This document shows, in pieces, positions 39,112 to 58,279 of a DNA stretch of 64,000 bases. The position numbers were made by a program, and so were the translations under genes. Source of the DNA: Bacteroides sp. AN502(2024). Its GTDB lineage: Bacteria > Bacteroidota > Bacteroidia > Bacteroidales > Bacteroidaceae. The stretch covers positions 143,549-207,548 of the forward strand of contig NZ_JBGFSP010000009.1 of NCBI RefSeq assembly GCF_041227145.1, in the 5' to 3' direction. Below the pieces are notes generated by a model that worked only from the letters and a program-made list of their open reading frames with translations, had not been told where the DNA came from and ran no database searches. Position 1 is the first letter of the stretch. The number at the start of each line of letters is the position of its first letter.

Positions 39112-39832
39112 AATGTGCCTATCCGTATGCGTGTCATATACGCAAGCCAACGCATCGAGTTTACAACAGGCTACCCGGATTGACGTAGCCAAATGGGATG
39201 CTGACAAACAACGGGTAAAAAATGGATGCACCAACAAGCTAAAACAAAGTGCATCCGAAATCAATGCGGACTTGCTGAAATACTATACCGAGATTCAAAA
39301 CGTGTTCAAGGAATTTGAGGTGCAGGAAACCATGCCGACCACCAAACAGCTAAAGGATGAGTTCAATCTAAGGATGAAAGACACCAATGAAGAACAGCAA
39401 GAAGAATCGCAGATTAGTTTTTGGGAGGTGTTTGATGAGTTTGTAAACGAGTGTGGCAATCAGAATAATTGGACGGCATCTACCTATGAGAAATTTGCAG
39501 CGGTAAGAAATCACCTCAAAGAATTCAAGGAAGATATAACCTTTGAATACTTCAACGAGTTTGGATTAAACGAATATGTGAATTTCCTGCGTGACAAAAA
39601 GAATATCTGTTGCTTCACAAGCCTGCGATATTCAGATGTTCGTAACCTGAAAAGAATCGATGTGAACCCCGACCACATAGAAGTTACCACAGTCAAAACG
39701 GCGGACAGCCTGATATTTGAACTGAACGACCACAGCAAAGCCATTCTTGAAAAATACAAAGATGTTCACAGAAGATGAATGATTATTTGGAAGAACTGGG
39801 GAGAACTGGCTGAAATCAACGAGCCTGTGCGG
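39112..39832 (+). pseudogene. Eroded tyrosine recombinase (integrase)
   Basis: Homology begins with NVPIRMRVIYASQRIEFTTGY, an arm-binding domain, then shifts frame at an extra C near 39172 to RIDVAKWDADKQRVKNG. The SAM-like domain runs to GLNEYVNFLRDKKN and is joined directly to CCFTSLRYSDVRNLKRIDV, so about 70 residues are missing, although the first catalytic Arg survives. After KAILEKYKDV another deletion and a frameshift lead to MNDYLEEL and ELAEINEPVR. The C-terminal catalytic His/Arg/Tyr region is gone. The end is fused in frame to a yhcG fragment. Confidence 0.82.
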
Positions 39833-42847: not shown

Positions 42848-45289
42848 TTACTCTTCCTTGGTATGAGATCGCTCTCCATACCCATAACCGTAGACATATC
42901 GTTTACCGTAGCCGTAGTACTTGCCATATTTGCCATAACCATAATAATAACCGTACTTTCTTCTCTTCAGGTCCAACCCATTTATCACCGTACACAGGTT
43001 GGGTAATTTATTATTTTCAGCAAGTTCGTTAATCAACGTATACTCATTTTTATGAGTATAGTCTGCACGGCAGACATAAACAGATAAATCGGCCACCCGC
43101 CCAATCAGCAAGGTATCGGTAACCATACCGACAGGGGCCGTATCCAGAATCACATAATCAAAATTCTTCTTGAGCGTTTCAATCGCTTTATCCAATCCGT
43201 CACGAGCCAATAATTCGGTCGGGTTAGGAGGCACTGTCCCTCCGGGAAGAATAGACAGGTTCTTGCTCACATCAGAAAGCTGTACCAGATCCATCAAGTT
43301 CCTTTCCGGATCGACCAAATATTGAGTGATACCTTGCTCCTTCCGGGAAATATTAAACACTTTATTCAATCCCGGCTTACGAATATCAAGACCAACGATC
43401 ACCACTTTCTTCCTCAATAAAGAAAGACTGATAGCAAGATTAGATGATACAAAGGACTTCCCCTCACCGCTAACCGTCGAAGTGACCAAAATCACCTTCT
43501 TGCCATTGTCAAGCATAAACTGGAGATTCGTACGAATATTCCGGAAAGTCTCACTCATCAGGTTATTTTGGTTTTCAAACACAGCAATGGCCCCCTGTTT
43601 TTCATCGGTCAATGGGATGTCACCAACAATCGGCAAACCGGTGAGTTTTTCCACATCCGAACGGCCTTCAATTTTAAACTTGGTCAATTCGAGCAGATAA
43701 ATACCCCCTACCGGAATTCCCACTCCTAACACTAAAGCTATCAGGTAAATCATCTTGTCCTTAGGAAACACGGGAGCATCATCCGCTATAGCGTCATCTA
43801 TAATCTTCGCATTATTGGCAGTAGCAGCCAGAGTAATAGCATTCTCCTCACGCTTCTGAAGAAGCATCAGATAAAGTCCTGCCTTTATCTCCTGTTGACG
43901 CGCAATGCTCACAAACTCACGCTCCTGACCGGGTGCCTCACTGATACGGCGGGAATAACGGTTCGCTTCACGATCCAAATCCGCCTTGGTGATGAACAAT
44001 CCGCGCAACACCCTGTCCAAAGATACCTGCACATTCTCTTTCATTGCACCGATGCTGGTATCCAAGTTGATAATGGCAGGATTATTCTCCGTTGATGTAC
44101 GCAGCAACCGTTTCCTCTCGACAAGCACATCATTATAACGATTGATGGCAGCCGCAAGATTCACATCCTGCAATCCGATGTTACTGGGCAGCACCTCATA
44201 CCCTCCATTTTGCATATATTTCTGCAAATCCTGCAGCAAATTAATCTGGGTTTGATTCTCCACACGCTTCTTTTCATATTCAGCACTACCGGTCAAAGCA
44301 ATCTGGGCATCACTGGTCAAATCCGTAATACCCGCCCCGCGTTTGAAACTTTCCAAATCCTTTTCCGTACTACCCAGTTCTTTCGAGATTATACCAATGC
44401 GTTCATTGATAAATTCTGCCGTTTTTTGCGCCACTTCATTCTTGTCATTATTCGTATTGATGTTATACATCTCCAATAACTTATTGATAAAATCTTTGCC
44501 ACGCTGTATATGGGAGTCCTTCAATGATATGACAGCCACAGAAGTGGTTTTGGAAGTGGGTTCGATAGTCAGATTCTCGCAACACCCTTTCGCTACAGTC
44601 AAAGGCTTATTAATTGTCGCCGTAATATTACGTGCGCCCCTTTCCGAATCAGTAGCCTCATCCGATGTTTTTTGAGAAGACAGCACGGAATCCGGCGTCA
44701 GAAAAAAAGCCAGTGCTCCCCGATCGGTGGGAAAAACAGCCGGCAACTTCTCAAAATGTTTCTGATATTCATCATCACCCACCTTCACATGTACATCCAG
44801 ACTTCCCTGCGGTTGCAATGTCATTTCCACACGCATTGGTTCTTCCAGCAAATCAGCTTCCTGTGGAGTCAGACTCACTTGTACGGGTGAAGTCTTATAC
44901 ATGTTTTTCGAAGGGAATTCATCCTCATCCGTATAAGATATATAGAGTCCCAAATCCTCAACCACCTCTTTGACGATATTTTTTGAACGGAGAACTTCAA
45001 TCTCGTTATCGATATTCTGCGAAGAAGACACCATGCCATCCAATCCCAGACTCTCCAACCCGGAAAGCATTCCGGCACTCCCCCCTTTCTTATCATCCTT
45101 AATTAAAACCGTGGCAGAAATGTTATATACAGGAGTGGCTATATGTAAATAGACCCATGCTGCAATCAAGCAAGCCACAACCGTCCCCACAAACCAAGGC
45201 CAGTGGATCAAAAATTTAAACAACAGCTCCTTGACGTCTATATTTTCTTCCTTAGATTCTATTGCTTCATTGAAATCGATTTCTTTCAT
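42848..45289 (-). CDS. Wzz chain-length regulator fused to BY-type tyrosine kinase
   Basis: This 813-residue inner-membrane protein controls polymer length and export of capsule. The Wzz domain is bounded by membrane helices at about 30-52 and 503-525, with long periplasmic coiled coils between. The cytoplasmic kinase has Walker A SGEGKSFVSSNLA, Walker A' VVIVGLDIRKPGL and Walker B YVILDTAPVG. The C-terminus is an unusually long tyrosine/glycine cluster (YGYYYGYGKYGKYYGYGKRY), the autophosphorylation tail. It is the last gene of the capsule operon, 9 bp after the export lipoprotein gene. Confidence 0.95.
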   Translation of the reverse strand: MKEIDFNEAIESKEENIDVKELLFKFLIHWPWFVGTVVACLIAAWVYLHIATPVYNISATVLIKDDKKGGSAGMLSGLESLGLDGMVSSSQNIDNEIEVLRSKNIVKEVVEDLGLYISYTDEDEFPSKNMYKTSPVQVSLTPQEADLLEEPMRVEMTLQPQGSLDVHVKVGDDEYQKHFEKLPAVFPTDRGALAFFLTPDSVLSSQKTSDEATDSERGARNITATINKPLTVAKGCCENLTIEPTSKTTSVAVISLKDSHIQRGKDFINKLLEMYNINTNNDKNEVAQKTAEFINERIGIISKELGSTEKDLESFKRGAGITDLTSDAQIALTGSAEYEKKRVENQTQINLLQDLQKYMQNGGYEVLPSNIGLQDVNLAAAINRYNDVLVERKRLLRTSTENNPAIINLDTSIGAMKENVQVSLDRVLRGLFITKADLDREANRYSRRISEAPGQEREFVSIARQQEIKAGLYLMLLQKREENAITLAATANNAKIIDDAIADDAPVFPKDKMIYLIALVLGVGIPVGGIYLLELTKFKIEGRSDVEKLTGLPIVGDIPLTDEKQGAIAVFENQNNLMSETFRNIRTNLQFMLDNGKKVILVTSTVSGEGKSFVSSNLAISLSLLRKKVVIVGLDIRKPGLNKVFNISRKEQGITQYLVDPERNLMDLVQLSDVSKNLSILPGGTVPPNPTELLARDGLDKAIETLKKNFDYVILDTAPVGMVTDTLLIGRVADLSVYVCRADYTHKNEYTLINELAENNKLPNLCTVINGLDLKRRKYGYYYGYGKYGKYYGYGKRYVYGYGYGERSHTKEE

Positions 45290-45298
45290 TGCAAATCA

Positions 45299-46102
45299 TT
45301 ATTTTAAGATATTTACTAATAAGCTGACGATAGATACCAGAATAGAGGTGGCAGAGAACCAGAGACTGGTACTGTTACCGACATCCGAATTTCGAGCTTT
45401 TGCCTTGTTGGGAGTCACATAGACAATATCATTCTGCTGTAACCAATAGTAAGGTGAGAGAATGGTTTCGGCATGATTCAAATCCAAGGTTACAATCTGC
45501 TGCTTACCGTTTGCGTCCTCACGAATCAGCTTCACATTATCACGAAGGCCGTACACCGTCATGTCACCGGCCATGGCCAAAGCCTCCAATAAGTTCACCT
45601 TCTCATTGGAAATGGTAAAAGTACCGGGGCAAGCCACTTCACCAATCACGGATATCTTATAATTGACCATACGCACCGTTACAATAGGAATCTCCTTCAT
45701 GTAAGGTTTTAGTTTATCTATAATCAACTGTTCAGCTTCCCTTTTCGTTAAACCTCCCAATTTCAATTCTCCCAATACCGGGAAATTGATGTTGCCTTCA
45801 TTATCAACCAAATAAGGCTGCAACGCAGCTTGAGTAGTCACAGAAGACGAACTCGCAGCCAAGCCTGCATTACTGGCTACTGTCAGGTTAAAAGGTATCG
45901 CAAGTTCCGGATTCGTACACGACACCACAATAGTCAACAAATCTTTCGGCATGATCTTGGCATCATAAAGCCTCTCCGGCTGTTCTGCCCGATTCACCAC
46001 ATCCACATTCTGAAAATATGGAACTTTCTTGTAAGACTGGCATGCAGCCAAAAGAAAAGGCAGCATCAGCCAAAGCAATAGCTGTTTATTTACTCTATTC
46101 AT
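45299..46102 (-). CDS. Polysaccharide export lipoprotein (Wza-like, SLBB domain)
   Basis: This 267-residue lipoprotein has lipobox LLAAC with Cys21, followed by SYKKVPYFQNVD. It has the poly-export domain (YDAKIMPKDLLTIVVSCTNP) and an SLBB-like domain (ISVIGEVACPGTFTISNEKVNLLEALAMAG). The C-terminus ends in a membrane helix (ILVSIVSLLVNIL). It is shorter than enterobacterial Wza, as usual in Bacteroides. It forms the export pair with the Wzz-kinase encoded immediately downstream. Confidence 0.94.
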   Translation of the reverse strand: MNRVNKQLLLWLMLPFLLAACQSYKKVPYFQNVDVVNRAEQPERLYDAKIMPKDLLTIVVSCTNPELAIPFNLTVASNAGLAASSSSVTTQAALQPYLVDNEGNINFPVLGELKLGGLTKREAEQLIIDKLKPYMKEIPIVTVRMVNYKISVIGEVACPGTFTISNEKVNLLEALAMAGDMTVYGLRDNVKLIREDANGKQQIVTLDLNHAETILSPYYWLQQNDIVYVTPNKAKARNSDVGNSTSLWFSATSILVSIVSLLVNILK

Positions 46103-46252
46103 ACAATCTATTTTATATAGTTATTACTTTCGGTTCTTCATCCGACGAGGCATATTTTTTGACCTTCCCACTTCGAATATTGTACAATTGGGATACTAAG
46201 TTACAACCGACAGCCCTTTTCTTTTCTGTATTCAATTAAATATTGAATGTTA

Positions 46253-47659
46253 TCAATAAGCCTCTTTTTCTCCATGCATGGCATTATACACCGTCTTATA
46301 TATAATATATAGATCCAATAAAAACGTCCAGTGCTCTATATACCAGATATCACGTTGCACACGCCCCTCCATCTGCCAGAGTTCTTTCGTCTCACCGCGA
46401 AACCCCGTCACCTGTGCCCATCCGGTTATTCCGGGTTTCACGAAATGACGCACCATGAACTTATTTATCAGACGGGAATACTCCTCCGTGTGCTTCAGCA
46501 TGTGCGGACGAGGTCCCACAATGGACATATCCCCCTTCAGCACATTTATAAATTGCGGCAATTCGTCCAAACTCGTCTTTCTCATAAATTCTCCGATACG
46601 CGTTTTACGAGGATCATTTTCCGTAGCCTGAAGGGTATTGCACTGCGCATTAACCCGCATTGAGCGAAACTTGTAACACCAGAATACACGGCCATCCTCA
46701 CCGCTGCGTTTCTGTTTGAAAAAGACAGGACCGGGAGAACTCAGCTTAATCGCAATCCCGAAGAATATATATATGAAGGGGAAGATAGTACAAAGAAATA
46801 ACCCCGAGCAGACAACATCAAAAGTACGCTTGACCATACGATTCTCCAATAATTCCAATGGCTCACAACGAATGGAAAGCACGGGCACATTACCCAATAG
46901 CTCGAAATGCATCCTACGCTTCAAATAATTACGGACATTAGGAACACTAAAGAAACGGACCAAATGATTTTCACAGTAATTAATGATAGGGACAATCTCT
47001 GCACTTCGCACAGAAGGAAGACTACAATAAAGCTGGTCGATCTCTCCCGCATGTCTCTCTAAAAAAGCACATACCTCATTGGGGTGTCCCAAATAGGGAA
47101 CATCCTGCGGATACCGTTCGGAAGGAACATCCTCGAAATACCCCAGTACACGATAACCGGACGTAGGATCATCCGTCATCGCATGATACAGCTCCTGCAT
47201 ATTCTCATGCCCGCCCACCAATACGACCTTGCGGACATTTCCTCCCCTTTTCCGATAAAGCTCCAAAAAGTGGCGGAAAACCAGGCGATAGCAGACAATT
47301 ACAACGATCAAAACGATATAAAACAATCCGAAATAACGGGAATGAGAAAAATGAAAATGAAAAACGAGCAACGTACAAATCGAGAAAAAGACAAAAGGAA
47401 CCATGTTGCGTAAGACACGAATCATGATCTGTCCGGGACGTACCACCGGACGATGAAGAATAACCCCTGAACGCAGGTTACAAAGTAAATAGCACAGAGT
47501 GATAAGAGTCATTCCCTGAAAGATAGAACCGCAATGGATACACCAGAAACGGGTACCCCCCAATAAATTAAATCCCCATAAAAGCAGGTTCAGCAAAATA
47601 AGATCACCCAAGAGGACCAAAGATTTTAGGACTTTGTTAAAACGTTGGACTTCCTGCAT
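46253..47659 (-). CDS. Undecaprenyl-phosphate sugar phosphotransferase (WbaP/WcaJ-type initiating enzyme)
   Basis: This integral membrane protein of about 468 residues starts the repeat unit by moving a sugar-1-phosphate onto undecaprenyl phosphate. It has four to five N-terminal membrane helices, a CoA-binding-like central domain (VVLVGGHENMQELYHAM), another hydrophobic segment, and the catalytic C-terminal domain with PVFFKQKRSGEDGRVFWCYK, KTSLDELPQFINVLKGDMS and GPRPHM. I prefer the ATG at 47659 (MQEVQRFNKVLK); an in-frame ATG at 47701 would add 14 Asn/Tyr-rich residues. Which sugar is used is not known. Confidence 0.93.
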   Translation of the reverse strand: MQEVQRFNKVLKSLVLLGDLILLNLLLWGFNLLGGTRFWCIHCGSIFQGMTLITLCYLLCNLRSGVILHRPVVRPGQIMIRVLRNMVPFVFFSICTLLVFHFHFSHSRYFGLFYIVLIVVIVCYRLVFRHFLELYRKRGGNVRKVVLVGGHENMQELYHAMTDDPTSGYRVLGYFEDVPSERYPQDVPYLGHPNEVCAFLERHAGEIDQLYCSLPSVRSAEIVPIINYCENHLVRFFSVPNVRNYLKRRMHFELLGNVPVLSIRCEPLELLENRMVKRTFDVVCSGLFLCTIFPFIYIFFGIAIKLSSPGPVFFKQKRSGEDGRVFWCYKFRSMRVNAQCNTLQATENDPRKTRIGEFMRKTSLDELPQFINVLKGDMSIVGPRPHMLKHTEEYSRLINKFMVRHFVKPGITGWAQVTGFRGETKELWQMEGRVQRDIWYIEHWTFLLDLYIIYKTVYNAMHGEKEAY

Positions 47660-47732
47660 AATAAAATAATAAATGTTATTAGAATAATTATTGTCCCCCA
47701 TACAACGTACTCCTGTTTATCAACAAGTTACG

Positions 47733-48458
47733 TTACCCCTTGGATTTCTCACGCCAGATATTCATCAGAAACAGCGGATTGCCGATGACATACCTGCGCC
47801 ACATCCGTCGAGGCTCCTTTATCAATCGGTACAACCACTCCAAAGAGTGCTCCTGCCACCAGCGTGGCGCACGCTGATAGGTACCAGCAAAGAAGTCGAA
47901 CACCGCTCCGATGGTACCCACATGGCAATGAATATTCAGTTCACTCCAATGACTATAAGTCCATTTCTCCTGCTTCGGTGCGGTCATTCCTATCCACAAC
48001 AAATCGGGATTAGCGTCATTGATAGCTGTTATTATCGCCCGGTTCTCCTCCTCCGTAAACTCCGGCTTATAAGGAGGAGAATACGTCACCACCTCTATGT
48101 TAGGATATATTGCCTTTGCCCGTCCCATAATCAGGTCGAGCACTTTCGGCAAGCTGCCCATGAACATACACCGTCCACCCCTACCATTCAACCGCCCCAT
48201 CTCAAACTCGAACAAGTCCCATCCGGCTATGCGCTCCTTCGGCTGACTCTTGCACCCCAACCATCGGCAAGCCTTTACAATGCTTGCTCCATCAGGAATA
48301 AGATAATCCCCATTCTTTAAGGCTTCTGCAAATAAACCATCTTTCTGTGCCGTGTTGAATGAGTGTGCGTTTATCGTGTTTATCAATCGCTTGCCGCAAG
48401 GTATATCCGCCAAAGACTCGCGGCTTTCCACGAGCGTAAGATTTTTTAGTAATAACAT
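47733..48458 (-). CDS. WecG/TagA/CpsF-family glycosyltransferase
   Basis: This 241-residue membrane-associated enzyme is of the family that adds N-acetylmannosamine or related sugars to a lipid-linked primer. Key parts are NAHSFNTAQKDGLFAEALKN, LIPDGASIVKACRWLG, IGMTAPKQEKW and GTIGAVFDFFAGTYQRAP. The C-terminal LEWLYRLIKEPRRMWRRY is the membrane-targeting region. It lies between the initiating transferase and a GT4 gene, so it probably adds the second sugar. Confidence 0.93.
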   Translation of the reverse strand: MLLLKNLTLVESRESLADIPCGKRLINTINAHSFNTAQKDGLFAEALKNGDYLIPDGASIVKACRWLGCKSQPKERIAGWDLFEFEMGRLNGRGGRCMFMGSLPKVLDLIMGRAKAIYPNIEVVTYSPPYKPEFTEEENRAIITAINDANPDLLWIGMTAPKQEKWTYSHWSELNIHCHVGTIGAVFDFFAGTYQRAPRWWQEHSLEWLYRLIKEPRRMWRRYVIGNPLFLMNIWREKSKG

Positions 48459-48470
48459 GTTGTTGTGTAT

Positions 48471-49583
48471 TTATTCATTGACAACTATCAGGCTATCAAA
48501 TATATGCTTGATTCTGCTCTCGAATACGTTCAACGTAAACCGCTCCTCAAACCTTTTTCGTGCCGACAGACCGAATTGTGTCATCAGTTGTGGAGTATTT
48601 ATGAGTTGTTCTATCTTCCCGACCAAAAGTTCCGGATTCTGCTTCTCGATGACAAATCCGGTCTTACCGTCTTCTATGATATCGGGTATGCCTCCTTCCG
48701 CAGTGCTGATGCAAGCTACTCCATGCTGCATGGCTTCAAGAAGCACTAATGGAAAGCACTCGTTACAATAAAACGTTGGAAAAACGAATATGTCTGCATA
48801 TTGCCAAAAAGGTTCCTTGTCACTACCATACTTTTTACCTTGATAGATAACCTGTTTATTAAGTCCCCTCTTTTCCACCTCGCGGATAAAACGCGCAGCA
48901 TCTATCTCTGCGGTCTCACTGCCGACAAAATCGCAAACAAAACTATATCCCCTATCTTTCAGTATTTTACAGGCATCCAACAAAACCAGCACGCCTTTAC
49001 TCTCCAGAAGATTTGAAAGAAACAACAGATGAGGAATCTTGTTATTTCTTTCTATCGCAGCTTTATCCGCCAATGTCTCCGGTATTCCGTTCGGACAAAT
49101 GTACACATCATCCCGACAAACATATTTCTTTATATCTTGATAAAGAGCTTCTGCCAAAAGTATGACCTTCAGCCCCTTGAAAAATTTCCTGTACAGAAAA
49201 TCATCGAACAGCCTGTCCTGCCTCGTTGCTACACCCTTGTTATGGTAATGCACAACCACACGACATCCCATACGCTTCAACATTTTCACCACAATGAAAT
49301 CTTTATAAAAAGCTCCGCCGCAGGCATTGGGCGTAACATAAACGAAACAAGGTCTTAACCGTTTAATCTCTCGTCGTATCCGCCTTAACAACGTTGCACA
49401 TTGCTTGATTTTCCGCAATCCCACCTTACCGATGTCGGAAAGGTCGCGCGCCGTGGTAAGATTGATGTAATGACAATCGAATGATTCATTTATCACACGG
49501 CTGTCATGAATATATTTCCCCACCATCGCCGCACCATGAACGGGAAGAGGAAGATGGAGAATAAAAAGAATCGTTGGTTTCAT
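48471..49583 (-). CDS. Glycosyltransferase family 4
   Basis: This protein of about 370 residues has the GT-B fold. The N-terminal domain starts TILFILHLPLPVHGAAMVGK. The C-terminal domain has LLFLSNLLESKGVLVLLDAC and the nucleotide-binding ADIFVFPTFYCNECFPLVLLEAM (the E-x7-E region). The ATG at 49583 (MKPTILFILHL) is preferred over 49610, which would overlap the upstream gene. It makes one glycosidic bond of the capsule repeat; donor and linkage are unknown. Confidence 0.92.
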   Translation of the reverse strand: MKPTILFILHLPLPVHGAAMVGKYIHDSRVINESFDCHYINLTTARDLSDIGKVGLRKIKQCATLLRRIRREIKRLRPCFVYVTPNACGGAFYKDFIVVKMLKRMGCRVVVHYHNKGVATRQDRLFDDFLYRKFFKGLKVILLAEALYQDIKKYVCRDDVYICPNGIPETLADKAAIERNNKIPHLLFLSNLLESKGVLVLLDACKILKDRGYSFVCDFVGSETAEIDAARFIREVEKRGLNKQVIYQGKKYGSDKEPFWQYADIFVFPTFYCNECFPLVLLEAMQHGVACISTAEGGIPDIIEDGKTGFVIEKQNPELLVGKIEQLINTPQLMTQFGLSARKRFEERFTLNVFESRIKHIFDSLIVVNE

Positions 49584-49603
49584 ATAGATGTTTTTATTGG
49601 GGC

Positions 49604-50479
49604 TTACCAATAGCAGCCACCTTCCACTTTTTCCAAATTCTTAGGTTTTTCATTTGCAGACGGTTCTACCCAATATTCATTATAGAAAGGATAATGTTTC
49701 CAGCGTTTTCCTTTAATGCCGAAATTTAATTGGAGAGTTCCTCCTATATGAATGGCCTTTTTTCCCATTCTTTTAATATATGCAGCTAAGGGAAACCCAT
49801 AAGCACCACATCCCAATAGAGCTATTTCGAAATCTTTCTCTTTTATTTCATTTTTCATGTATTCCAATGCTTCAAACCAACTAGAAAATCCGTCTGTATT
49901 TCCAGCTATGGTTTGTACTGCTTTTATTGTTTCTAATGATTCGAACTCCGGTAATATCAAGTCATTGGGAAACAATTTATCTCTGTACTGCATATATTGT
50001 GTACGAATACTATCTGCAAATGGATGTACGACCAAAATCTTTTTTCCTTGCAAGGCCTTGCTCCAATAATCACTATCACAGCTGGGCCATAAATCGCTTA
50101 ACGATATTTTAAAAGCATTATGCAATCGTTTTCTAAAAAAGAATTCTTCCGGTCGCCAAGAGGCCAATATATCCACCTCCTTCATATCCTGTAACATTAA
50201 CTTGGCGAATTGTTTTAACGACCCCTCATCAACAGGAAAGAAGCCAGCATTATTTCTCATGCATTTATAAGTATATTTTCTTAACAAATAAGACAGGGGG
50301 GGGGGTAAAATTACATAAAGCACAGCTTTGATTTCTACAGCTCCAAAACGTGCCACCATCAAAGGAGTGTCTGATTGTATCTTTTGTTGCATATATAAAT
50401 AAGATTCCTTGCCTATATGTTTAGGAAAAATAAAATCCCCTATTTTAAATATAACCTTGCGAAATATATTATTCTTCAT
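49604..50479 (-). CDS. Putative GT-D-fold glycosyltransferase containing a C10 tract
   Basis: This 291-residue protein has the features I associate with GT-D/DUF1792-like transferases: TPLMVARFGAVEIKAVLY near the N-terminus, an ILVVHPFADSIRTQY segment and a C-terminal IALLGCGAYGFPLAAYIKRMG followed by HIGGTLQLNFGIKGKRW. No signal peptide is seen. Codons 59-61 (PPP) lie in a run of ten C; the frame is open at this length, and a change of one base would stop translation early. The family assignment is tentative; the capsule context supports a sugar or phosphosugar transferase. Confidence 0.68.
   Translation of the reverse strand: MKNNIFRKVIFKIGDFIFPKHIGKESYLYMQQKIQSDTPLMVARFGAVEIKAVLYVILPPPLSYLLRKYTYKCMRNNAGFFPVDEGSLKQFAKLMLQDMKEVDILASWRPEEFFFRKRLHNAFKISLSDLWPSCDSDYWSKALQGKKILVVHPFADSIRTQYMQYRDKLFPNDLILPEFESLETIKAVQTIAGNTDGFSSWFEALEYMKNEIKEKDFEIALLGCGAYGFPLAAYIKRMGKKAIHIGGTLQLNFGIKGKRWKHYPFYNEYWVEPSANEKPKNLEKVEGGCYW
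50296..50305 (-). repeat. Homopolymer C10 tract (coding strand) in the GT-D-like gene
   Basis: Ten consecutive C on the coding strand (G on the plus strand), about 58 codons into the gene, in an otherwise AT-rich region. It is long enough for slipped-strand mispairing. The gene is in frame at ten. Confidence 0.9.
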
Positions 50480-50588
50480 TTTTCTTTTAATTATTGATGT
50501 GAATAGCCGTTTTCTACTATTATTTTTTATTACAACCTTCTGGTATATAGCAACGAGAGAGTTTTTATTTTCATATCTTTAAGGTTGT

Positions 50589-51590
50589 CTATATAAAACT
50601 GTGAGCGATTGCAAGAAGCCGCTCAACGGACGCTTCATTAGAGGTAGTGCTCTTGTCGATGCTTGACCACAGCCGCTCATTGTTACCCTGTCGCATCACT
50701 TTTCGGATTTTGGATTTCAGTTCAGAAATGTCCATTACATCGTTTATCACATCGTCATCTGTAAGTTCTTTTATCACCTCGCGAGCACCCACATTGTGCG
50801 ACACCAATACACTGCACCCACACGACAACGCTTCAATAGTCCCAAGACTAAATGGCTCAAAATCAGAATTTTGTACAAAAAGTGCAGTTCTATTCAATAC
50901 ATTAAACAACTCTGTTTGCGGTATAACATGATGGTATCTAGTGCAAGAAATTTGACTGATTGCTTTCGAATCATCATTGTCGTTATAATATCCGTACACA
51001 GCTACTTTTATATTAACATTATCTTCTTTGTTTATTTCTTCTACAGCCTGACATACTTGTAAATTGCGTTTCGTCACACGACCACCTCCTATCAATACTA
51101 TTGAAGAATCGTCCCTAGTTATAGACATATTTCTGTTTTTGGTCAGAACATTCCAATTAATGCCATTAGTCAGTACTCCCAGCTTTTGTCTATATTGAGG
51201 ATATCTTTCAGAAATCTGTTCCTTGTAAAAGGAAGACACACACAGAATCTTGTCAGCCATTTCTAACATTAACCGTTCGTTATCTATTCCACGCTGATTA
51301 GAGAAGTAGTTATTCTGTTCATATTCCCACGAAAGACAACCATGCATGATATATATGATTCTCTTATGTAGCTTTTTAGCAATAGGCACTGTGATATGAT
51401 CAACGCTTGAAATTCCAGAGAAAACAATCACCTTTGAGTTGACTATCTTGTAAATCATTTCCATCATCCTCAATATCTTTGATTTGAAATGAGTAAACGA
51501 AGCCTTCCCTTTCAAACATTCTACTATGTTCTTGTTTACATTCCAAGGACCGCCAGTCCCGAAATAATTACCTGCGAAAAATATGTCCAT
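50589..51590 (-). CDS. Glycosyltransferase (GT4/GT1-like)
   Basis: This is a 333-residue GT-B enzyme. It starts MDIFFAGNYFGTGGPWNVNK, with the glycine-rich acceptor loop, and the C-terminal half has IVLIGGGRVTKRNLQVCQAV and the donor-binding LFVQNSDFEPFSLGTIEALSCG. It lies 2 bp downstream of the Wzy/ligase-like gene, in the same operon. Donor and linkage cannot be told. A gap of about 110 bp with no gene separates it from the GT-D-like gene. Confidence 0.88.
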   Translation of the reverse strand: MDIFFAGNYFGTGGPWNVNKNIVECLKGKASFTHFKSKILRMMEMIYKIVNSKVIVFSGISSVDHITVPIAKKLHKRIIYIMHGCLSWEYEQNNYFSNQRGIDNERLMLEMADKILCVSSFYKEQISERYPQYRQKLGVLTNGINWNVLTKNRNMSITRDDSSIVLIGGGRVTKRNLQVCQAVEEINKEDNVNIKVAVYGYYNDNDDSKAISQISCTRYHHVIPQTELFNVLNRTALFVQNSDFEPFSLGTIEALSCGCSVLVSHNVGAREVIKELTDDDVINDVMDISELKSKIRKVMRQGNNERLWSSIDKSTTSNEASVERLLAIAHSFI

Positions 51591-51592
51591 AA

Positions 51593-52798
51593 TTATTGTT
51601 TTTCTATTTTCTTCAAAGTCAATATATACTTGTTGGCATGTAATAGCACAGCCAGCATCACAGCTAATGAAAATGTATAATTGACAGCAAATTGCAGCAT
51701 CTCAAGCCCCGGATTGAGTAATATGATAATTACCTGATATAGAAAATTAGCCAACGACCACCCTATATATTGTTTATGTATGTTGTCGGATGCTTGATAG
51801 CATTTCACACTCCATACCACAAACATCATATTGATCAGCATAAAAAGAACACCTCCTATAATGCCCATACGATAGAACATATTGAGAAATGTATTATGAT
51901 TTGCCACAAGGAACAATCCCTCCCACCCGCTATTGCCTTCTCCGAAATACATATTGATATTATCGGTAAATCTGGCGATATTCGAAGTGACATAGGCTGA
52001 ACCAAACCCCACACCTGTAAATCCGGTCTGTCGGAGCGAATCTATTTCATTTGTCCAGACTATCAAACGCCAAATCGCATTAGGGTCGCTATTTACCACT
52101 TCCATCACTATCGAAGAAGCAAGCACCAACAATACTGCAAAAGCAGATAGCAAAGCAAATATTTTGGTTTTCGTATTTTCGGCAAAAGCCGACATAAGAG
52201 GTTGAAGACAAACAATGACTGCAATCAATATCATAGAGGCTATGAGATAAGCCGATTGAGCAATAAAAACAAAAGGTACAACTAAGAGCAATATCTTCAT
52301 TCGAAATTTCATTGCCATCAATGAGATGCTACTTACCACCAGTCCTATCAGACTAAGACCTCCTCCGAGCAAGAAAGAAGCCGAAGCTATAAGAACAAGC
52401 AAGAACAATTGAAACTTCTTCATCCGGAATATATAGTCTGTTCGATACAAACAATAACCCAACCCCATTGCCATTGCCATTTCTGCAATGACCATAAAAT
52501 GACGATAGATATATGCCATATCAAACCGCAAGTTCTCTACATTCCATAACTTTGGCAGATTGACATACGATAGCAATAGATAAACAAATGCCACCATGAA
52601 GAATCCCATAAGCAATCGTTTGAATATGTATCCTTCTTTGATTAACGAACTATTATGGCTGAATATCTTATATCTATGTATCCAATAAACGGAAAACAGT
52701 GCTATCTCAATTACATAAATCAACTGGGTTAGATTTTTGGGAAGGAGGAATATGCTGAGCCAAAACGCTATGTATTGGAGGATTAAAAGTTTTTCCAT
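51593..52798 (-). CDS. O-antigen polymerase/ligase-like membrane protein
   Basis: This 401-residue protein has about ten to twelve membrane helices and a large loop before NHNTFLNMFYRMGIIGGVLF, the conserved His-containing Wzy/WaaL-type segment, preceded by GFTGVGFGSAY. It probably polymerises or ligates capsule repeats. Its first 92 bp overlap, in another frame, the end of the upstream frameshifted Wzy-like gene. Two Wzy-type proteins in one operon are unusual; with the other out of frame this one may be the only functional copy. Confidence 0.85.
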   Translation of the reverse strand: MEKLLILQYIAFWLSIFLLPKNLTQLIYVIEIALFSVYWIHRYKIFSHNSSLIKEGYIFKRLLMGFFMVAFVYLLLSYVNLPKLWNVENLRFDMAYIYRHFMVIAEMAMAMGLGYCLYRTDYIFRMKKFQLFLLVLIASASFLLGGGLSLIGLVVSSISLMAMKFRMKILLLVVPFVFIAQSAYLIASMILIAVIVCLQPLMSAFAENTKTKIFALLSAFAVLLVLASSIVMEVVNSDPNAIWRLIVWTNEIDSLRQTGFTGVGFGSAYVTSNIARFTDNINMYFGEGNSGWEGLFLVANHNTFLNMFYRMGIIGGVLFMLINMMFVVWSVKCYQASDNIHKQYIGWSLANFLYQVIIILLNPGLEMLQFAVNYTFSLAVMLAVLLHANKYILTLKKIEKQ

Positions 52799-54058
52799 TT
52801 GTCATTTTTGCAAGACAAGCAAATCTTATTAAAGCATACATCATGAACTCGCTTGTTTCTAACCATAGATGCGTTATCAAAGACACTATCATGAACAAAT
52901 CAAGCAATAATATATACTGATAAAGAAATGCTTGCCTCTTTTTGAATTTGATTAAATCTCTATAGTTTTTCCATAGTAGTGAGCAAAAAAACACAAAGAA
53001 AAACACTCCATGTTCCGCCCATAATGATACCATACTGGAGTATGGCTTATTGCGCGTCCCATCGGTAAAATGACTTTGAGATACCAATCCGTCATTCCAC
53101 AAACTGTATATATTTTTCTTATAATAGGGGGGGGGGGGGGGGTAGATGAACCGAATATCTTTTTTAACGGGTTGAAATGATCCGGAGAAAGTAACAATGC
53201 GCTCCGACTGTTATACCCTCCGGCACCGGTTCCTACGACACAAAAAGTCATATCATGATTCACATTGTCAAAAAAATCGACAAACATTTCCATCTTGCGG
53301 GCATCGCTTCCATTTTCTGCTTTCATAATATTTTCTCGCTCATAACGGAAGCTATCCAAAGTGAGTAACCAACTTCCTATTGCCAGTACCATGACGGCTA
53401 ATACAACCGTCTTGATGCGTCTCATCATCAAAAGATAAATCAGTATGCTTATAAACAGACATATCATTCCCAACCCATATTGACAGCCAAATATGGAAAT
53501 AAGAAAGAATACAAATAAGAACACAGTCTTATCATCTCGCTTTTCATAAAATATTTTCAATCCTAAATAAAGCAATACATATATATTGATCATAGCAAGT
53601 CCGTGCACCGTTTCATAATGGCTTCCGTATGGAATACCCCACGCGTCTCCGATCATTCCTGATTTCACCCAACATACTCCTCCAAAGATATTGAGAGGTA
53701 TTAGTATATATAGCATCCAGCGTTGCAGTAAGCTCAATTTGACAGTAAACAGAGAACGTATATTCCGTTGTGGCTTGATAAAAAACAAGTATAACATCGG
53801 TAGGAATATAATGACTGATACCATCACATTTTGCAAATTGGTAGTTCCACTTAAAACTCCCATAAAAGAGGTAATACCCCATAAGGCTATCAACCATCTC
53901 ATACCGCGCTGTACCTTAAAAGGATGAATACAATAAATCCCATACAAAAACAATGGAGATACCAAGATGGCAATGCTACGAATTGGAGTGAGTAATAAAA
54001 GCAAGAACATTCCAATAAGTATTTTTGCTTGGAACATTGTCAATTGAGTTTGTTGCAT
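52707..54058 (-). pseudogene. Wzy-like capsule polymerase, out of frame at a C16 tract (possibly phase-off)
   Basis: The gene starts MQQTQLTMFQAKILIG at 54058 and encodes several membrane helices plus FCVVGTGAGGYNSRSALLL, a Wzy-type motif. After KKIFGSS the coding strand has sixteen C. In the present frame translation runs into unrelated sequence (IIRKIYTVCGMTDW) and ends at 52952. With 14 or 17 C it would continue as YYKKNIYSLWNDGLVSQSHF and YSSMVSLWAEHGVFFF, the conserved end of the family, to a stop at 52707, giving about 450 residues. The rest is intact. It may be a reversible off state or a homopolymer-length error. Confidence 0.85.
53127..53142 (-). repeat. Homopolymer C16 tract (coding strand) inside the Wzy-like gene
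   Basis: Sixteen consecutive C on the coding strand interrupt an AT-rich gene. Reading frame requires a count that leaves remainder two on division by three (14 or 17); at sixteen the polymerase is truncated. Confidence 0.92.
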
Positions 54059-54073
54059 ATTGAAAATATAGAT

Positions 54074-55062
54074 TTAAAATCTCCCCAATAGTATCTTTTC
54101 AAGCAATCTATTCGCATGAATAATTTTTGAGACAAAAATACTGGGAATGAGAATCATAAACATTCCGATAGAAAAAACGAGTAATTGTATCACAAAAGGA
54201 AATTCCGACATTTGCCACCCTTGCAATATAGTGGAAATAGAGCCTTTAAATCCTAAAAAGAAAAAATAGTGTATCACATAAATGTCTAAACTGATATGCC
54301 CGCAATAATTAACGAACCGATTTATTTTGCTATCAGATTTCCACTGACTTATGATCATAAATACAAAAATGGTGAGAGGTGTACGAATAAGATATGTGAG
54401 TATTGTATTACAGTCAATACCTGTTGTATAGATAATGGAGAACAATACAGTACCCGTCAATCCGAGTATACCTACTATGTTTTGATGTTGTGCGAACCAT
54501 TCATACCAATTTTTGTACCTGAACGTTATTCCCAGCAAATAAAATACAAGATAATCTTTAGCGAAAAGATGTATGTAAAAAGAAATTACCACCCCACAAG
54601 AAGTATGCCAAGGCATTGCAAATAGAAATTATTTATGCGCATACTTTGTGCTATATATAAAACCACTATACTTGTAAGGCGGAAGAAAAACAACGAATAT
54701 ATAAACCAATATCCGTTTTTTGCTTGAACGGTAAACAGCGTACCCAAAGATTCTATATCATACAGAATGCCTTGCTGATATTTTAGCAGTGCTGTATAAC
54801 TGAGCCCTAACACAAGAAACGGTATAAGCAATGTAAAATTTTTATAATTAGCAACATCTCTCCACGCCAAAGGTCGAGTAAATATTTTATATCCCACATA
54901 ACCCGAAGCCATGAAAAACATACTCATATAGAACATGGGAAATAAATGTCCAAGCATCCATTCTGTCTTGTTGAAAGGCATATAAGCAATGTGTCCCAAT
55001 ACAACGCAAAGGATGCCTATACCCTTTATGTTGTCTATCCATTCCAATCTTTTTGTCATCAT
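54074..55062 (-). pseudogene. Acyltransferase-3 (OafA-like) gene with a one-base frameshift
   Basis: The start MMTKRLEWIDNIKGIGILCVVLGH is a classic acyltransferase-3 beginning with the catalytic His. The frame stops after YLQCLGILLVGW, and the second half continues in another frame as VVISFYIHLFAKDYLVFYLLG, ending KILLGRF at 54074. Adding one G to the G4 run at 54592-54595 rejoins the halves into about 330 residues, the usual length. It would O-acetylate capsule sugars. It is the most upstream capsule gene left; 8 bp before its ATG the prophage begins. Confidence 0.85.
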
Positions 55063-55087
55063 TTATATGGTGTATTTTATAATCGCG

Positions 55088-55130
55088 AAAACGAAACGTA
55101 CAATTTTCTAAAACGAAACGTACAATTTTC
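55088..55130. repeat. Two tandem end repeats, 22-bp period (probable transposase binding sites)
   Basis: Two identical 21-bp copies at 55088-55108 and 55110-55130 share the core CGAAACGTACAATTTTC. They lie 17 bp inside the proposed prophage terminus. Mu ends carry arrays of about 22-bp MuA sites, so the same role is inferred here. Confidence 0.75.
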
Positions 55131-55154
55131 ACTATTTTTTCAGCCCATCAAAGC

Positions 55155-55196
55155 AAAGGCATTTAATCACCATTCAAGCGGTAATTAAATGCCTTT
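55155..55196. terminator. Inverted repeat downstream of the Mom-like gene
   Basis: Thirteen-bp arms AAAGGCATTTAAT (55155-55167) and ATTAAATGCCTTT (55184-55196) surround a 16-base loop. It probably ends the leftward late transcript before the prophage terminus; no strong T-run follows. Confidence 0.55.
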
Positions 55197-55256
55197 TGAA
55201 CATCTGCAAAAAGCGCGGAAAATGTTGTTTTTCATCTGCATTTTGCCTGCACTTTA

Positions 55257-55288
55257 TTTGTTCAATTCGTAGAAAATCATTATCTTTG
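55257..55288 (+). promoter_or_regulatory. Full Bacteroides promoter pointing into the Mom-like gene in antisense
   Basis: TTTG (55257-55260), 20 bp, then TATCTTTG (55281-55288) is a perfect TTTG-N19-21-TAnnTTTG match on the plus strand. Transcription would start near 55296 and run antisense through the Mom-like gene, which ends at 55340. No plus-strand gene follows. Confidence 0.7.
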
Positions 55289-55339
55289 CTTAGTGATTAA
55301 GAGATCGTTTTGCATAGGTTTGCCCCGTTAGCAAGCTTT

Positions 55340-56092
55340 TTATGTAACCAGCTTATCAAGCAGGCGAACAATGTTTGTCTTTATCTTGTGCCTGTCTCTT
55401 TGCCACTCTATTTGTTCCATCCCTTTGTCATATTCGGGATAAGGCTTTTCTTTCATCTTAAACTGAAAATGCTTGCACAAAGGATAAATGTAACGGTAGG
55501 TTTTCACCACGAACACATCCAGGTCACCAAGCAAGAAGGCTACATTTGAACGTACATAGCCGGATGGTGATGTCGTATTTGTGAGTATTTGGTTATGGAT
55601 AAACTCGCCCGTTCGCCTATTGCGCAGAAAACGCGTGTAATGAAAGCCGTAATATTTGAAGTTGGCCGCCTTGTAAATTGTTCCGCAGCCTAAACGACCA
55701 TCGGCGAAACTTTGTATAGCCACGATATTCTCATCCATTTTGCGGATCAACTTGATGCTGGCGGCAATTAGCACGGTTTCCGCATTCTTCCCGAGGCAGT
55801 CGTCAATCCACAAACGGTTTAATTCGCATATCCACGCTTTCGGACTCGGGTGATGGAATAATCTTACTTTGGGATTCTTCATGTAACCGTAAACCGCAAC
55901 ACCGAGGCATTTGTCCGGTTCATCGGCGCGGAAGATACCGAAGTTAAACACTCCAAAGCCGCCAAAGTTCCATTTATGGGAATAATGGTGTTCAAGCACC
56001 ATTTGGCGGGCTAGTTCCTTTGTCACGGGTTTGATAAGCAGGTCGCCGAGCGATGAGGTTTGTTTCAGGACAAACAGATTTTCTTTAATCAT
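55340..56092 (-). CDS. Mom-like DNA modification protein (GNAT-fold)
   Basis: This 250-residue protein has the pattern of the phage Mu Mom family, which modifies adenines to protect phage DNA from restriction. Visible are VLEHHYSHKWNFGGFGVFNF, LGVAVYGYMKNPK, the ICELNRLWIDDCLGKNAETV motif and FADGRLGCGTIYKAANFKYYG, where Mom has its conserved substrate region. It is the terminal gene of the prophage, as mom is in Mu. No Com-like zinc-finger activator is encoded next to it. The exact chemical modification in this family member is unknown. Confidence 0.75.
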   Translation of the reverse strand: MIKENLFVLKQTSSLGDLLIKPVTKELARQMVLEHHYSHKWNFGGFGVFNFGIFRADEPDKCLGVAVYGYMKNPKVRLFHHPSPKAWICELNRLWIDDCLGKNAETVLIAASIKLIRKMDENIVAIQSFADGRLGCGTIYKAANFKYYGFHYTRFLRNRRTGEFIHNQILTNTTSPSGYVRSNVAFLLGDLDVFVVKTYRYIYPLCKHFQFKMKEKPYPEYDKGMEQIEWQRDRHKIKTNIVRLLDKLVT

Positions 56093-56134
56093 TCAGCATA
56101 TTGATAGCGTTTTAATGTTTCATGAATATTTCCC

Positions 56135-56413
56135 TCACGATCCTTTTGCCGGGTGGCGCACGATGAGTGGTTCCTGCGGGTTGTCGGGTGGAGCCGTGAC
56201 AGCGACGAACGATCGCAAGAGATACGGTGACTGTTCCGGCGCATGGCATCGGGCCACACTCCGCACGTTGAACGAGCGGATGATACCGTTTTTTCTTTCT
56301 TCATCCCCCGTCGCCATGTGGACATGGAGCGCAAAACCGCGCAGCATGGCGGAATCATCACGGACTGTCCGCGGTGATGCGCCAATTGAGAATGTACGGA
56401 TGATCGGTTTCAT
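56135..56413 (-). CDS. Small phage protein of unknown function (92 residues)
   Basis: The frame begins MKPIIRTFSIGASPRTVRDD, 3 bp after the stop of the beta-helix gene, and ends PLIVRHPAKGS. The composition is protein-like (RGFALHVHMATGDEERKNG) and it lies in the late operon before the Mom-like gene. It has a single Cys and so is not a Com homologue. I do not recognise the family. Confidence 0.55.
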   Translation of the reverse strand: MKPIIRTFSIGASPRTVRDDSAMLRGFALHVHMATGDEERKNGIIRSFNVRSVARCHAPEQSPYLLRSFVAVTAPPDNPQEPLIVRHPAKGS

Positions 56414-56416
56414 TGC

Positions 56417-58279
56417 TTACTGTTTACGGGCTATTATTTTAAATTGGCAATAGCGGTCGTTCATCACACTCTTGCACAGTTTTTCGGCGTATCCGCCATC
56501 GCTTTGAGGCTGATAGGAGCGGTTGTTCCCCGAGGAGACGGGGATGCCGTCATCATCATACTGTACCACGCCGCCGGACTTGCAGACAAAGTAGTCGCCG
56601 AAGAGTTGTGCGGGTATCCACGGCTGTGCGGGCACCCGTGTGTCGTCGAACATGATGGCGATGCGGTATTCAGGATCATCGGCGGGTGGTATGAATATGT
56701 CGGTATCGTTGGCCGCCACGAAACTCTCGCCGGGCACAACGGTCCGTCCGCGGTATCGGATGGGGCTCTCACCCGTGTTGAGATAGACACCACCGCTTTG
56801 CAGGGAGTCTGCCGCCTGCAGCGTGGAGAATATGACGGGGGTCGATCGCAGGTAGCACACGTTTTCGATGTTGGGGTCTTCGAGTGTGTGAAGTGTACCC
56901 GTATCCGTGCCGTTAAGCCCGGATACGAACGTGGTACCCTCCTCGTCGACCGCCAGCACGTTTCCCGTGACATAAACGGCGTTGCGGTATGCCACGTTTC
57001 CATCTACTACGTACCGGCCTTGCGGCAGGAGGTCTCCGGGGGCGAATGTGCGGTCGGTCACGGGGCGGTCGTTGAGTACGATGCCGTGCGAACCGAACAG
57101 GGAGGTGAACGATGCGAGTATACCGGTAACGGATGCCCGTGCGGTGTCGAGTCTGATGATTTTACTGAGCACTTCGCCCACCGTGTCGATGCTTGTCTCA
57201 TCCAGACAGATGGCTCCGCCTGCAATGGTGAGTATGCCGGCCGCACTCTGCTCGTCCCATGTGCCGGCTATACCTATACTGTTATCCATGATGGGTATGG
57301 AGAGTGCGGGAGGCAAGGCACCCAGATAGGAATCGGTAATGCCCGGCAGGAATCCGGCGGGATTGGCGGCCGGGCTGTCGGCTCGAAGTGTCAGATCACC
57401 TGCTCCGGGGTTGTTAAAAAGTTCTTCCGCCGTTTGCGCTGTGAAGATGCAGCGGGTGAACACGGGCATGAGTTCCTCTCTCACACCCCGTCCGCGGCAT
57501 TGCCCGAGCAGACTGTCACGTCGCGCTTCTCCCCCGGATGCTTCGGTAATGAGTTCCTCACCGTCGAGGAACCAGCGGCAATCGGCAGTGAACAGGCACT
57601 CCTCGAAACGCAACGGTTCGTCGGCGTAGAAATCGCACCGGGCAAGAATGCTTGTACGGATAATTTCGATGCCGTACGATTCCCGCCTACGGTGTCCGAT
57701 GGGCACGTTATGGACAGTGAAGTGAGACACTTCTCCATTACCCGCATAGCATATTTTCCTATCTCCGCAGATCTTGGGGCTGTCTATCACCACATGGTGT
57801 ATGCCTCTTTTCCCGCCGATGCACCCCATGTATAAGGGTGAGTTGCGTATGATAACGCTATGGTCGCCCACACCCCATGAGTGCTGCGCCCACCCGAAAT
57901 ATCCTCCCCAGGCACGTCCCACCCCGGCATATCCCCATGCGCCGTATCGTATCATGGCGGTGTAGGTGGCCGGCGCGCAATTCTCCACGATGATGTCATT
58001 CAGCGTGAAGCCATGAATGAGATAGGTGTCTTGCCCGTCGAATGTGGCCGCTCCCATGTAGTCTCCTTGTATGCGGGTATCGTGGTCTCCATCGGACATG
58101 TCCTCGCAGAATCGTCCTCGGCAGATGATTTCTTTCGCCGCGGTTCCGTGTCCCCTATACGCCTTTCCCAGTGTCTGATAGGGATTATCCGGGGTTCCTG
58201 TGCCGATGAGGTCGTTTCCCGCGTATGAGTCCACATAGACACACCGGGCGTTTCGTGTCCGCCACAAATAAGGTCTCAT
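56417..58279 (-). CDS. Prophage tail fibre/appendage with right-handed beta-helix region
   Basis: This 620-residue protein opens with CVYVDSYAGNDLIGTGTPDN, then PYQTLGKAYRG, a DUF1565/pectate-lyase-like start, followed by irregular beta-helix coils (TYLIHGFTLNDIIVENCAP, VIIRNSPLYMGCIGG). The C-terminal part is repetitive and Asp/Gly-rich with an unclear fold (PRYRGRT-type turns). It is probably a host-binding fibre or tailspike. Its start overlaps the stop of the 98-residue gene by 4 bp (ATGA). The antisense strand is open for 463 codons, which reflects GC-rich codon use. Confidence 0.75.
   Translation of the reverse strand: MRPYLWRTRNARCVYVDSYAGNDLIGTGTPDNPYQTLGKAYRGHGTAAKEIICRGRFCEDMSDGDHDTRIQGDYMGAATFDGQDTYLIHGFTLNDIIVENCAPATYTAMIRYGAWGYAGVGRAWGGYFGWAQHSWGVGDHSVIIRNSPLYMGCIGGKRGIHHVVIDSPKICGDRKICYAGNGEVSHFTVHNVPIGHRRRESYGIEIIRTSILARCDFYADEPLRFEECLFTADCRWFLDGEELITEASGGEARRDSLLGQCRGRGVREELMPVFTRCIFTAQTAEELFNNPGAGDLTLRADSPAANPAGFLPGITDSYLGALPPALSIPIMDNSIGIAGTWDEQSAAGILTIAGGAICLDETSIDTVGEVLSKIIRLDTARASVTGILASFTSLFGSHGIVLNDRPVTDRTFAPGDLLPQGRYVVDGNVAYRNAVYVTGNVLAVDEEGTTFVSGLNGTDTGTLHTLEDPNIENVCYLRSTPVIFSTLQAADSLQSGGVYLNTGESPIRYRGRTVVPGESFVAANDTDIFIPPADDPEYRIAIMFDDTRVPAQPWIPAQLFGDYFVCKSGGVVQYDDDGIPVSSGNNRSYQPQSDGGYAEKLCKSVMNDRYCQFKIIARKQ

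What the first reader, a model, noticed from the sequence alone, without database searches (positions are those of the whole stretch)
53127..53142. Capsule polymerase gene split by a C16 tract: candidate phase-variable off state
Seen: a Wzy-like gene is intact except for sixteen consecutive C on the coding strand; at 14 or 17 C the two halves form one 450-residue protein with a normal family ending. Known: long homopolymers in surface-structure genes switch genes by slippage in Campylobacter, Neisseria and Haemophilus. Bacteroides capsules are known mainly for promoter inversion. Inference: this is a slippage-controlled polymerase, currently off.
Basis: partly seen in the sequence, partly recalled or inferred. 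Interest (0 to 1): 0.85.

Follow-up and report, generated by a model that had tools for sequence, protein, structure and literature searches.

The report
Slippage-prone capsule gene in Bacteroides
A gut Bacteroides carries a run of sixteen C's that splits an otherwise intact sugar-polymer gene, and similar runs are concentrated in its other surface-sugar genes, which suggests that this bacterium may vary its coat by DNA slippage as well as by its known promoter flips; switching itself has not been observed.

Summary
Observation confirmed. Sixteen C on the coding (minus) strand, window 53127-53142, sit between two conserved halves of a polymerase-like membrane gene in a capsule-type operon. Two tract-free relatives from another genus are single open frames that align to both halves; the C-half resumes at the first codon after the tract and shows no decay. 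Neither half nor the G220 relative matches Pfam, so 'Wzy' is inferred from context and topology.

The new evidence is the wider pattern. The window's genome has 24 G/C runs of at least 8; they cluster, and 14 lie within 5 kb of a glycosyltransferase gene, in 7% of the genome (12 of 22 without the window's two). In 69 genus genomes, 7 of 24 runs of at least 12 lie in Acyl_transf_3 genes, against 0.04 expected.

Best reading: slippage contingency loci across polysaccharide genes of this Bacteroides, this one out of frame as assembled. Switching was not observed: no reads or sister isolates were available. The gene upstream is also broken, at a non-tract site, so decay of the operon remains a rival. 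Ten literature searches found no report of this.

The parts
53127..53142 (-). C16 tract on the coding strand (G16 on +), between the two halves of the polymerase-like gene
53144..54058 (-). N-terminal half of the polymerase-like gene, 305 codons; as read, the open frame runs on to 52952 (368 aa)
   Evidence: 37% identical over 290 columns to the open homologue G220; no Pfam match
52707..53126 (-). C-terminal half, open in another frame from the first codon after the tract
   Evidence: 55% identical over 108 aa to G220 and 41% over 114 aa to G542; codon preference
50296..50305 (-). second tract of the same operon, C10, in frame in a GT-D-like gene
   Evidence: absent from the 16 homologues aligned, one of them a paralogue in the same genome
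49604..50479 (-). GT-D-like transferase gene holding the C10 tract, open frame 291 aa
   Evidence: PF22882; a 57% identical gene directly follows the polymerase homologue in G220
51593..52798 (-). intact neighbouring polymerase/ligase-like gene
   Evidence: PF04932 Wzy_C, E 1.1e-8
54074..55062 (-). first gene of the operon, Acyl_transf_3, split into two frames (54586-55062 and 54074-54616) at a site with no long tract
   Evidence: the upstream piece over the PF01757 cut-off (44.2 against 31 bits), the downstream piece at E 1.8e-6 but below it (27.7 bits)
42848..51590 (-). rest of the capsule/exopolysaccharide operon: glycosyltransferases, WecG-type, sugar transferase, Wza-like and Wzc-like genes
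   Evidence: the Wza and Wzc labels are by eye; relatives of the Wzc-like gene in Bacteroides

Best explanation
The C16 tract is a replication-slippage contingency site in a capsule-type polymerase gene of a gut Bacteroides. Shown: the tract lies between two conserved coding halves, the assembled length puts them in different frames, and such tracts are concentrated in polysaccharide genes of this genome and, in acyltransferase genes, of some related species. Inferred: strand slippage adds or removes C's at high frequency. In-frame lengths give a full membrane protein with a few prolines in a variable stretch between two conserved motifs. Out-of-frame lengths give a protein cut before its last membrane segments and the conserved ...DGTRNKP... 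stretch. Together with similar tracts in transferase and acetyltransferase genes, this would let cells differ in polymer structure, a second layer beside the known promoter inversion.
For: A single lesion exactly at the tract: the G220 and G542 homologues are uninterrupted, have no tract and align to both halves. No decay after the tract: C-half 59/107 identical to G220, against 40/107 between the two open homologues; N-half 108/298 against 96/287. Genome-wide: 24 runs of 8 or more; 14 of 24 within 5 kb of a gene of two glycosyltransferase families (7.0% of the genome, binomial 7e-11) and 11 of 24 within 3 kb (4.8%, 4e-9); without the window's own two runs 12 of 22 (5e-9) and 9 of 22 (4e-7). 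For the 24, three radii and two definitions were tried and all gave P of 3e-8 or less (positions). Seven neighbouring pairs are closer than 10 kb against 1.1 expected; none of 20,000 simulations reached 7. Genus: 7 of 24 runs of 12 or more lie in PF01757 genes, expected 0.04; 5 of 24 if the two less certain ones are dropped, P 6e-10, or 1e-7 with a threefold larger background. Orthologous acyltransferase genes of G011 and G151 both carry a long G run at one site, split there in one and open in the other; 39 of the 74 differences after the tract fall at third codon positions. Tract-bearing genes of the window's genome show mixed states.
Against: No reads and no second isolate: length variation within this species was not seen. 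The adjacent Acyl_transf_3 gene is broken without a tract, and another tract-bearing gene (L128) has a second lesion, so some of these loci may be decaying. Of 69 genus genomes 54 have no run of 12 or more. The polymerase occurs in no other genus genome except one weak hit (2 of 158, own included), so no orthologous tract could be compared. 14 of the 24 long runs lie outside polysaccharide and acyltransferase genes. The frame difference of the G011/G151 pair is not purely a matter of the count of G: it comes from the tract together with its edges. Of the seven acyltransferase runs, the one in G016 abuts a 54-base run of N, and the one in G156 lies at the very start of the open frame, before the domain. 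Two of the 14 runs near glycosyltransferase genes are not in polysaccharide genes (one in a GH57 gene, one between genes).
Confidence: 0.72

Rival explanations
1. The polymerase gene is a recent, permanent pseudogene in a decaying capsule operon; the tract grew by drift and is not a switch.
For: The first gene of the operon is split as well, at a non-tract site; the operon abuts a Mom-family gene and DNA that looks phage-like by eye; no TAnnTTTG promoter motif was found on its strand in 54900-55500.
Against: Neither half of the polymerase has a further stop or frameshift, and the C-half is as conserved as in the open homologues. Drift does not explain the concentration of G/C runs near glycosyltransferase genes. 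Eight of the ten operon genes are open.
Confidence: 0.16
2. Assembly or sequencing error: the true tract length is in frame and the gene is simply intact, with an unusual proline run.
For: Long G/C homopolymers are hard to call (recalled); 5 of the 24 runs of 12 or more lie within 350 bases of a contig end and one abuts a run of N in related assemblies.
Against: The tract is mid-contig with conserved coding sequence on both sides. Its presence is not in doubt, only its exact length. Even an in-frame allele would keep a long run that the two homologues lack.
Confidence: 0.08
3. Slippage by RNA polymerase or the ribosome at the tract makes a fixed fraction of full-length protein without any change of DNA.
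For: Homopolymers are known sites of transcript slippage (recalled, no call).
Against: Not tested here. It does not by itself explain that the G011 and G151 orthologues differ in length at the tract and its edges.
Confidence: 0.03

Closest known systems
Poly-C switching of the meningococcal capsule polysialyltransferase gene siaD
   Same: A C tract inside the coding region of a capsule polymer-forming enzyme (recalled; one search gave only listings of papers that mention siaD and slipped-strand terms).
   Different: Other phylum, unrelated enzyme; switching proven there (recalled) and not here.
Campylobacter jejuni G/C homopolymer contingency genes (e.g. Cj1295, PMC3068675, title and start of abstract seen)
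   Same: G/C tracts concentrated in surface-glycan genes, with in-frame and out-of-frame states (recalled for Campylobacter).
   Different: Here 24 runs of 8 or more in 4.8 Mb, in Bacteroides, and variation within cultures is not shown.
Invertible promoters of Bacteroides capsule operons
   Same: Would also vary the polysaccharide coat within one strain.
   Different: Acts on transcription of whole operons by recombination. In 54900-56500 the repeat search gave one inverted pair only, a hairpin with 17-nt arms and an 8-nt loop; other places were not searched for invertible promoters.
Bacteroides fragilis 638R acetyltransferase frameshift in a run of four C (PMC3090145; passages read)
   Same: Authors suggest that slipped-strand mispairing could vary a polysaccharide acetyltransferase.
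   Different: A four-base run, one gene, a suggestion only; no long tracts and no genome-wide pattern in the passages read.

Membership tests
Simple-sequence (homopolymer) contingency locus | Repeat tract far longer than chance in or near the gene | tested here: met
   C16; expected 3e-5 or fewer per window
Simple-sequence (homopolymer) contingency locus | Tract length decides the reading frame of an otherwise intact gene | tested here: met
   Two conserved halves in different frames meeting at the tract
Simple-sequence (homopolymer) contingency locus | Tracts concentrate in surface-structure genes of the genome | tested here: met
   14 of 24 runs within 5 kb of a glycosyltransferase gene, 7.0% of the genome; 12 of 22 without the window's two
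Simple-sequence (homopolymer) contingency locus | Tract length varies between related copies | tested here: inconclusive
   An acyltransferase orthologue pair of two other species differs at the tract and its edges; for this gene no other copy with a tract was found
Simple-sequence (homopolymer) contingency locus | Reversible, high-frequency length change with change of phenotype | not testable with these tools
   Needs reads or cultures
Wzy polymerase | Match to a Wzy or O-antigen ligase family model | tested here: not met
   0 Pfam families for both halves and for the G220 homologue; no relevant NCBIfam match for the halves. Hence called Wzy-like, not filed as Wzy
Wzy polymerase | Many membrane segments with a large loop, in a polysaccharide operon | tested here: met
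   9 hydrophobic segments by a crude hydropathy scan of the G220 homologue, longest gap at residues 243-348; operon genes
Wzy polymerase | Fold of Wzy/WaaL enzymes | tested here: inconclusive
   Single-sequence model of the N-half too poor to compare, mean pLDDT 52

The most novel reading that the evidence does not exclude
Some Bacteroides species run a Campylobacter-like, genome-wide set of G/C slippage switches in their polysaccharide genes (polymerase, glycosyltransferases, O-acetyltransferases, sugar-nucleotide enzymes). Each operon could then yield many polymer structures within one clone, a combinatorial layer on top of promoter inversion.
Probability: 0.55. Interest if true: 0.82.

Novelty: new member of a known kind. 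Interest (0 to 1): 0.62.

Why it matters
Bacteroides coat variation is known chiefly as promoter inversion. If polysaccharide genes also switch by slippage, coat structure, phage sensitivity and immune recognition could vary inside an operon that looks constitutively 'on', and pipelines that discard homopolymer indels would miss it. The tract positions given here make it directly testable by counting tract lengths in reads.

Tried and rejected
Homologues of the polymerase N-half: genome contigs and viral contigs gave none. The genus search gave 2 of 158 genomes, own included; G155 is a weak hit, 37% over query residues 163-230, and its protein does not match the C-half. The family search gave 3 of 399, own and G155 included. 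The genus of G220, searched with the G220 protein, gave 5 of 398, G220 itself and three short weak hits included.

PDB search of the N-half gave two weak pilin hits (E 0.0056 and 2.4), dismissed as chance. The AlphaFold model of the N-half was too poor for a fold search, so none was run.

The first tally of runs of 12 or more counted overlapping windows and included incomplete genomes. It was replaced, which counts each run once in genomes of at least 98% completeness: 24 runs in 15 of 69 genomes; none was dropped before the counts given here. Five of them lie within 350 bases of a contig end (G011:C53, G057:C124, G078:C41, G118:C44, G133:C7). The PF01757 background is a count of matches with an assumed 1.15 kb each; candidates were capped in some genomes, so it may be low, and therefore also gives a threefold background. 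A first attempt to align the GT-D homologues picked wrong frames (second part) and was redone. An invertible promoter was looked for by repeats in 54900-56500 only.

Literature, 10 searches (eight of them with Bacteroides or Bacteroidetes among the terms): nothing listed reports slippage contingency loci in Bacteroides capsule genes. The library holds open-licence papers only. Passages were read in PMC3090145, PMC11868660, PMC13183296 and PMC12413058; all other papers were seen as listings with the start of the abstract.

Full report
What is there. The window holds 16 G on the + strand at 53127-53142. On the minus strand this is a C16 run between an open stretch of 305 codons (53144-54058) and a second open stretch (52707-53126) in another frame. 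Under a first-order Markov model the window should hold 6e-7 G runs and 3e-5 C runs of this length. The gene lies in a polysaccharide operon read from right to left: split acyltransferase, split polymerase-like gene, PF04932 Wzy_C gene, glycosyltransferase, GT-D-like gene, glycosyltransferase, WecG-type, sugar transferase, then Wza-like and Wzc-like genes (by eye). Of the 18 relatives found for the Wzc-like gene, 17 bear Bacteroides names and one is a Bacteroidia bacterium; the best segment is 91% identical.

One gene, broken only at the tract. In another genus of the family, genome G220 holds a 434-codon open frame that matches the N-half at 37% (E 5e-58) and the C-half at 55% over 108 residues (E 8e-38), the latter from the first codon after the tract. 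A second such gene, G542, is open over 425 codons. Neither has a G/C run over 5. At the tract site both have a short variable stretch with one proline codon between the conserved ...GGYNSR... and ...DG.RNKP... stretches. Summed codon preference also moves from one frame to the other at the tract, though window by window the signal is weak. The C-half shows no decay: 59 of 107 residues equal G220 and 43 of 107 equal G542, while the two open genes share 40 of 107; for the N-half the figures are 108 of 298, 77 of 287 and 96 of 287. The last part of the C-half, after residue 108, has no counterpart in G220, and the half overlaps the next gene by 92 bases. Neither the halves nor the G220 gene match a Pfam family, so 'Wzy-like' rests on topology and context.

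The pattern in the same genome. There are 24 G/C runs of 8 or more in 4.8 Mb. Of these, 11 lie within 3 kb of a gene of two main glycosyltransferase families (zones of 4.8% of the genome, binomial 4e-9) and 14 within 5 kb (7.0%, 7e-11); without the window's own two runs the numbers are 9 of 22 (4e-7) and 12 of 22 (5e-9). Seven neighbouring pairs lie closer than 10 kb, against 1.1 expected. By reading of the loci, with Pfam matches for all but the polymerase-like gene, 13 of the 24 lie in genes of polysaccharide type: four hexapeptide acyltransferases, a hexapeptide/sugar-transferase frame, an Acyl_transf_3 gene, a GT11-type gene, a PF00534 gene, a GT2 gene, the GT-D-like gene, a short-chain dehydrogenase, a UDP-sugar dehydrogenase and the polymerase-like gene. 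One more lies upstream of a gene that looks like a flippase. Of the 13, four are out of frame at the tract (polymerase, GT11, dehydrogenase, one hexapeptide gene that has a second lesion), seven are in frame, and two have the tract so near the gene end that the state cannot be told; this is a reading by eye of three-frame translations and of the open frame for the GT-D gene. The other ten runs are in or near unrelated genes, among them a SpoIIM-like gene split at a G12 run. Two of the 14 runs within 5 kb of a glycosyltransferase gene belong to these ten.

The pattern in the genus. In 69 genomes of at least 98% completeness, runs of 12 or more number 24, in 15 genomes. Seven lie in Acyl_transf_3 genes, while that family covers about 0.17% of the bases (468 matches, 1.15 kb assumed for each), so 0.04 are expected (P 1e-14). 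One of the seven abuts a run of N (G016) and one lies at the start of the open frame, before the domain (G156); without them 5 of 24 remain (P 6e-10). One (G133) has no polysaccharide genes beside it by eye. By eye two of the seven are split at the tract and four are open; G016 cannot be judged because of the N run. Three more runs lie in polysaccharide genes: two in the window's genome, and one in G007, where a G15 run splits a gene without a Pfam match between an epimerase and a GT2 gene. Of the remaining 14, five lie within 350 bases of a contig end, one is in the SpoIIM-like gene, one is in an RND-like frame, and seven have no coding assignment by eye. G011 and G151 hold orthologous acyltransferase genes (79% over 218 residues) with a G run at the same site, split there in G011 and open in G151; the difference lies in the tract together with its edges, not in the count of G alone. 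After the tract 39 of 74 differences fall at third codon positions, so the sequence downstream has evolved as coding sequence. G011 has a further G10 run that splits a GT4 gene, with family matches on both sides.

How it most likely works. Shown: tract, frames, conservation, concentration near polysaccharide genes. Inferred: replication slippage changes the tract length, and the protein is complete in some cells and lacks its last part in others. Because a PF04932 gene follows intact, the out-of-frame state may change chain structure rather than abolish the polymer. The in-frame C10 tract in the GT-D gene of the same operon, absent from the 16 aligned homologues, would be a second site.

What speaks against. 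No reads or sister isolates could be examined. The first gene of the operon is split at a site without a tract, and the operon abuts a Mom-family gene and DNA that looks phage-like by eye, which fits a decaying locus. Of 69 genus genomes 54 lack runs of 12 or more.

What is known. Homopolymer contingency genes are well known in Neisseria, Haemophilus and Campylobacter (recalled; listings). For Bacteroides my ten searches brought up promoter inversion and one suggestion of slippage for a four-C run in a B. fragilis acetyltransferase (PMC3090145, passages). A 2025 review of phase variation speaks of Bacteroides only in connection with inversion or in general terms in the ten passages shown (PMC11868660). 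The mechanism is therefore of a known kind; its use in Bacteroides polysaccharide genes appears unreported in what I could search.

Noticed in passing
window 54586-54616: The first gene of the operon, an Acyl_transf_3 gene, is split into two frames at a site with no long tract; one piece scores over the PF01757 cut-off and the other just below it.
   Followed up: partly
window 50296-50305: A C10 run lies in frame in the GT-D-like gene of the same operon, absent from the 16 homologues aligned.
   Followed up: yes
L134:1005-2165 (G000:C3, C14 run): A C14 run lies just past the hexapeptide repeats of an acetyltransferase; as assembled the open frame runs on into a sugar-transferase domain, a possible length-dependent fusion.
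   Followed up: partly
L127 / G000:C3:2343954-2343965: A G12 run splits a SpoIIM-like membrane gene in a cluster with genes that look like ABC-type ones; not a polysaccharide gene.
   Followed up: partly
L140 / G000:C4:403242: A T12-G10 double run lies upstream of a gene that looks like a flippase; it could act on promoter spacing rather than frame.
   Followed up: no
window 55343-56092 and onward: A Mom-family gene (PF25680) stands directly upstream of the capsule operon; beyond it genes that look phage-like by eye (three tested, no Pfam match) reach the contig end.
   Followed up: partly
window 55088-55130: Two perfect 21-base direct repeats, 22 bases start to start, lie just upstream of the operon; function unknown.
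   Followed up: no
window 39113-39775: Piece of a tyrosine integrase (PF13102 SAM-like domain), apparently a mobile-element remnant.
   Followed up: no
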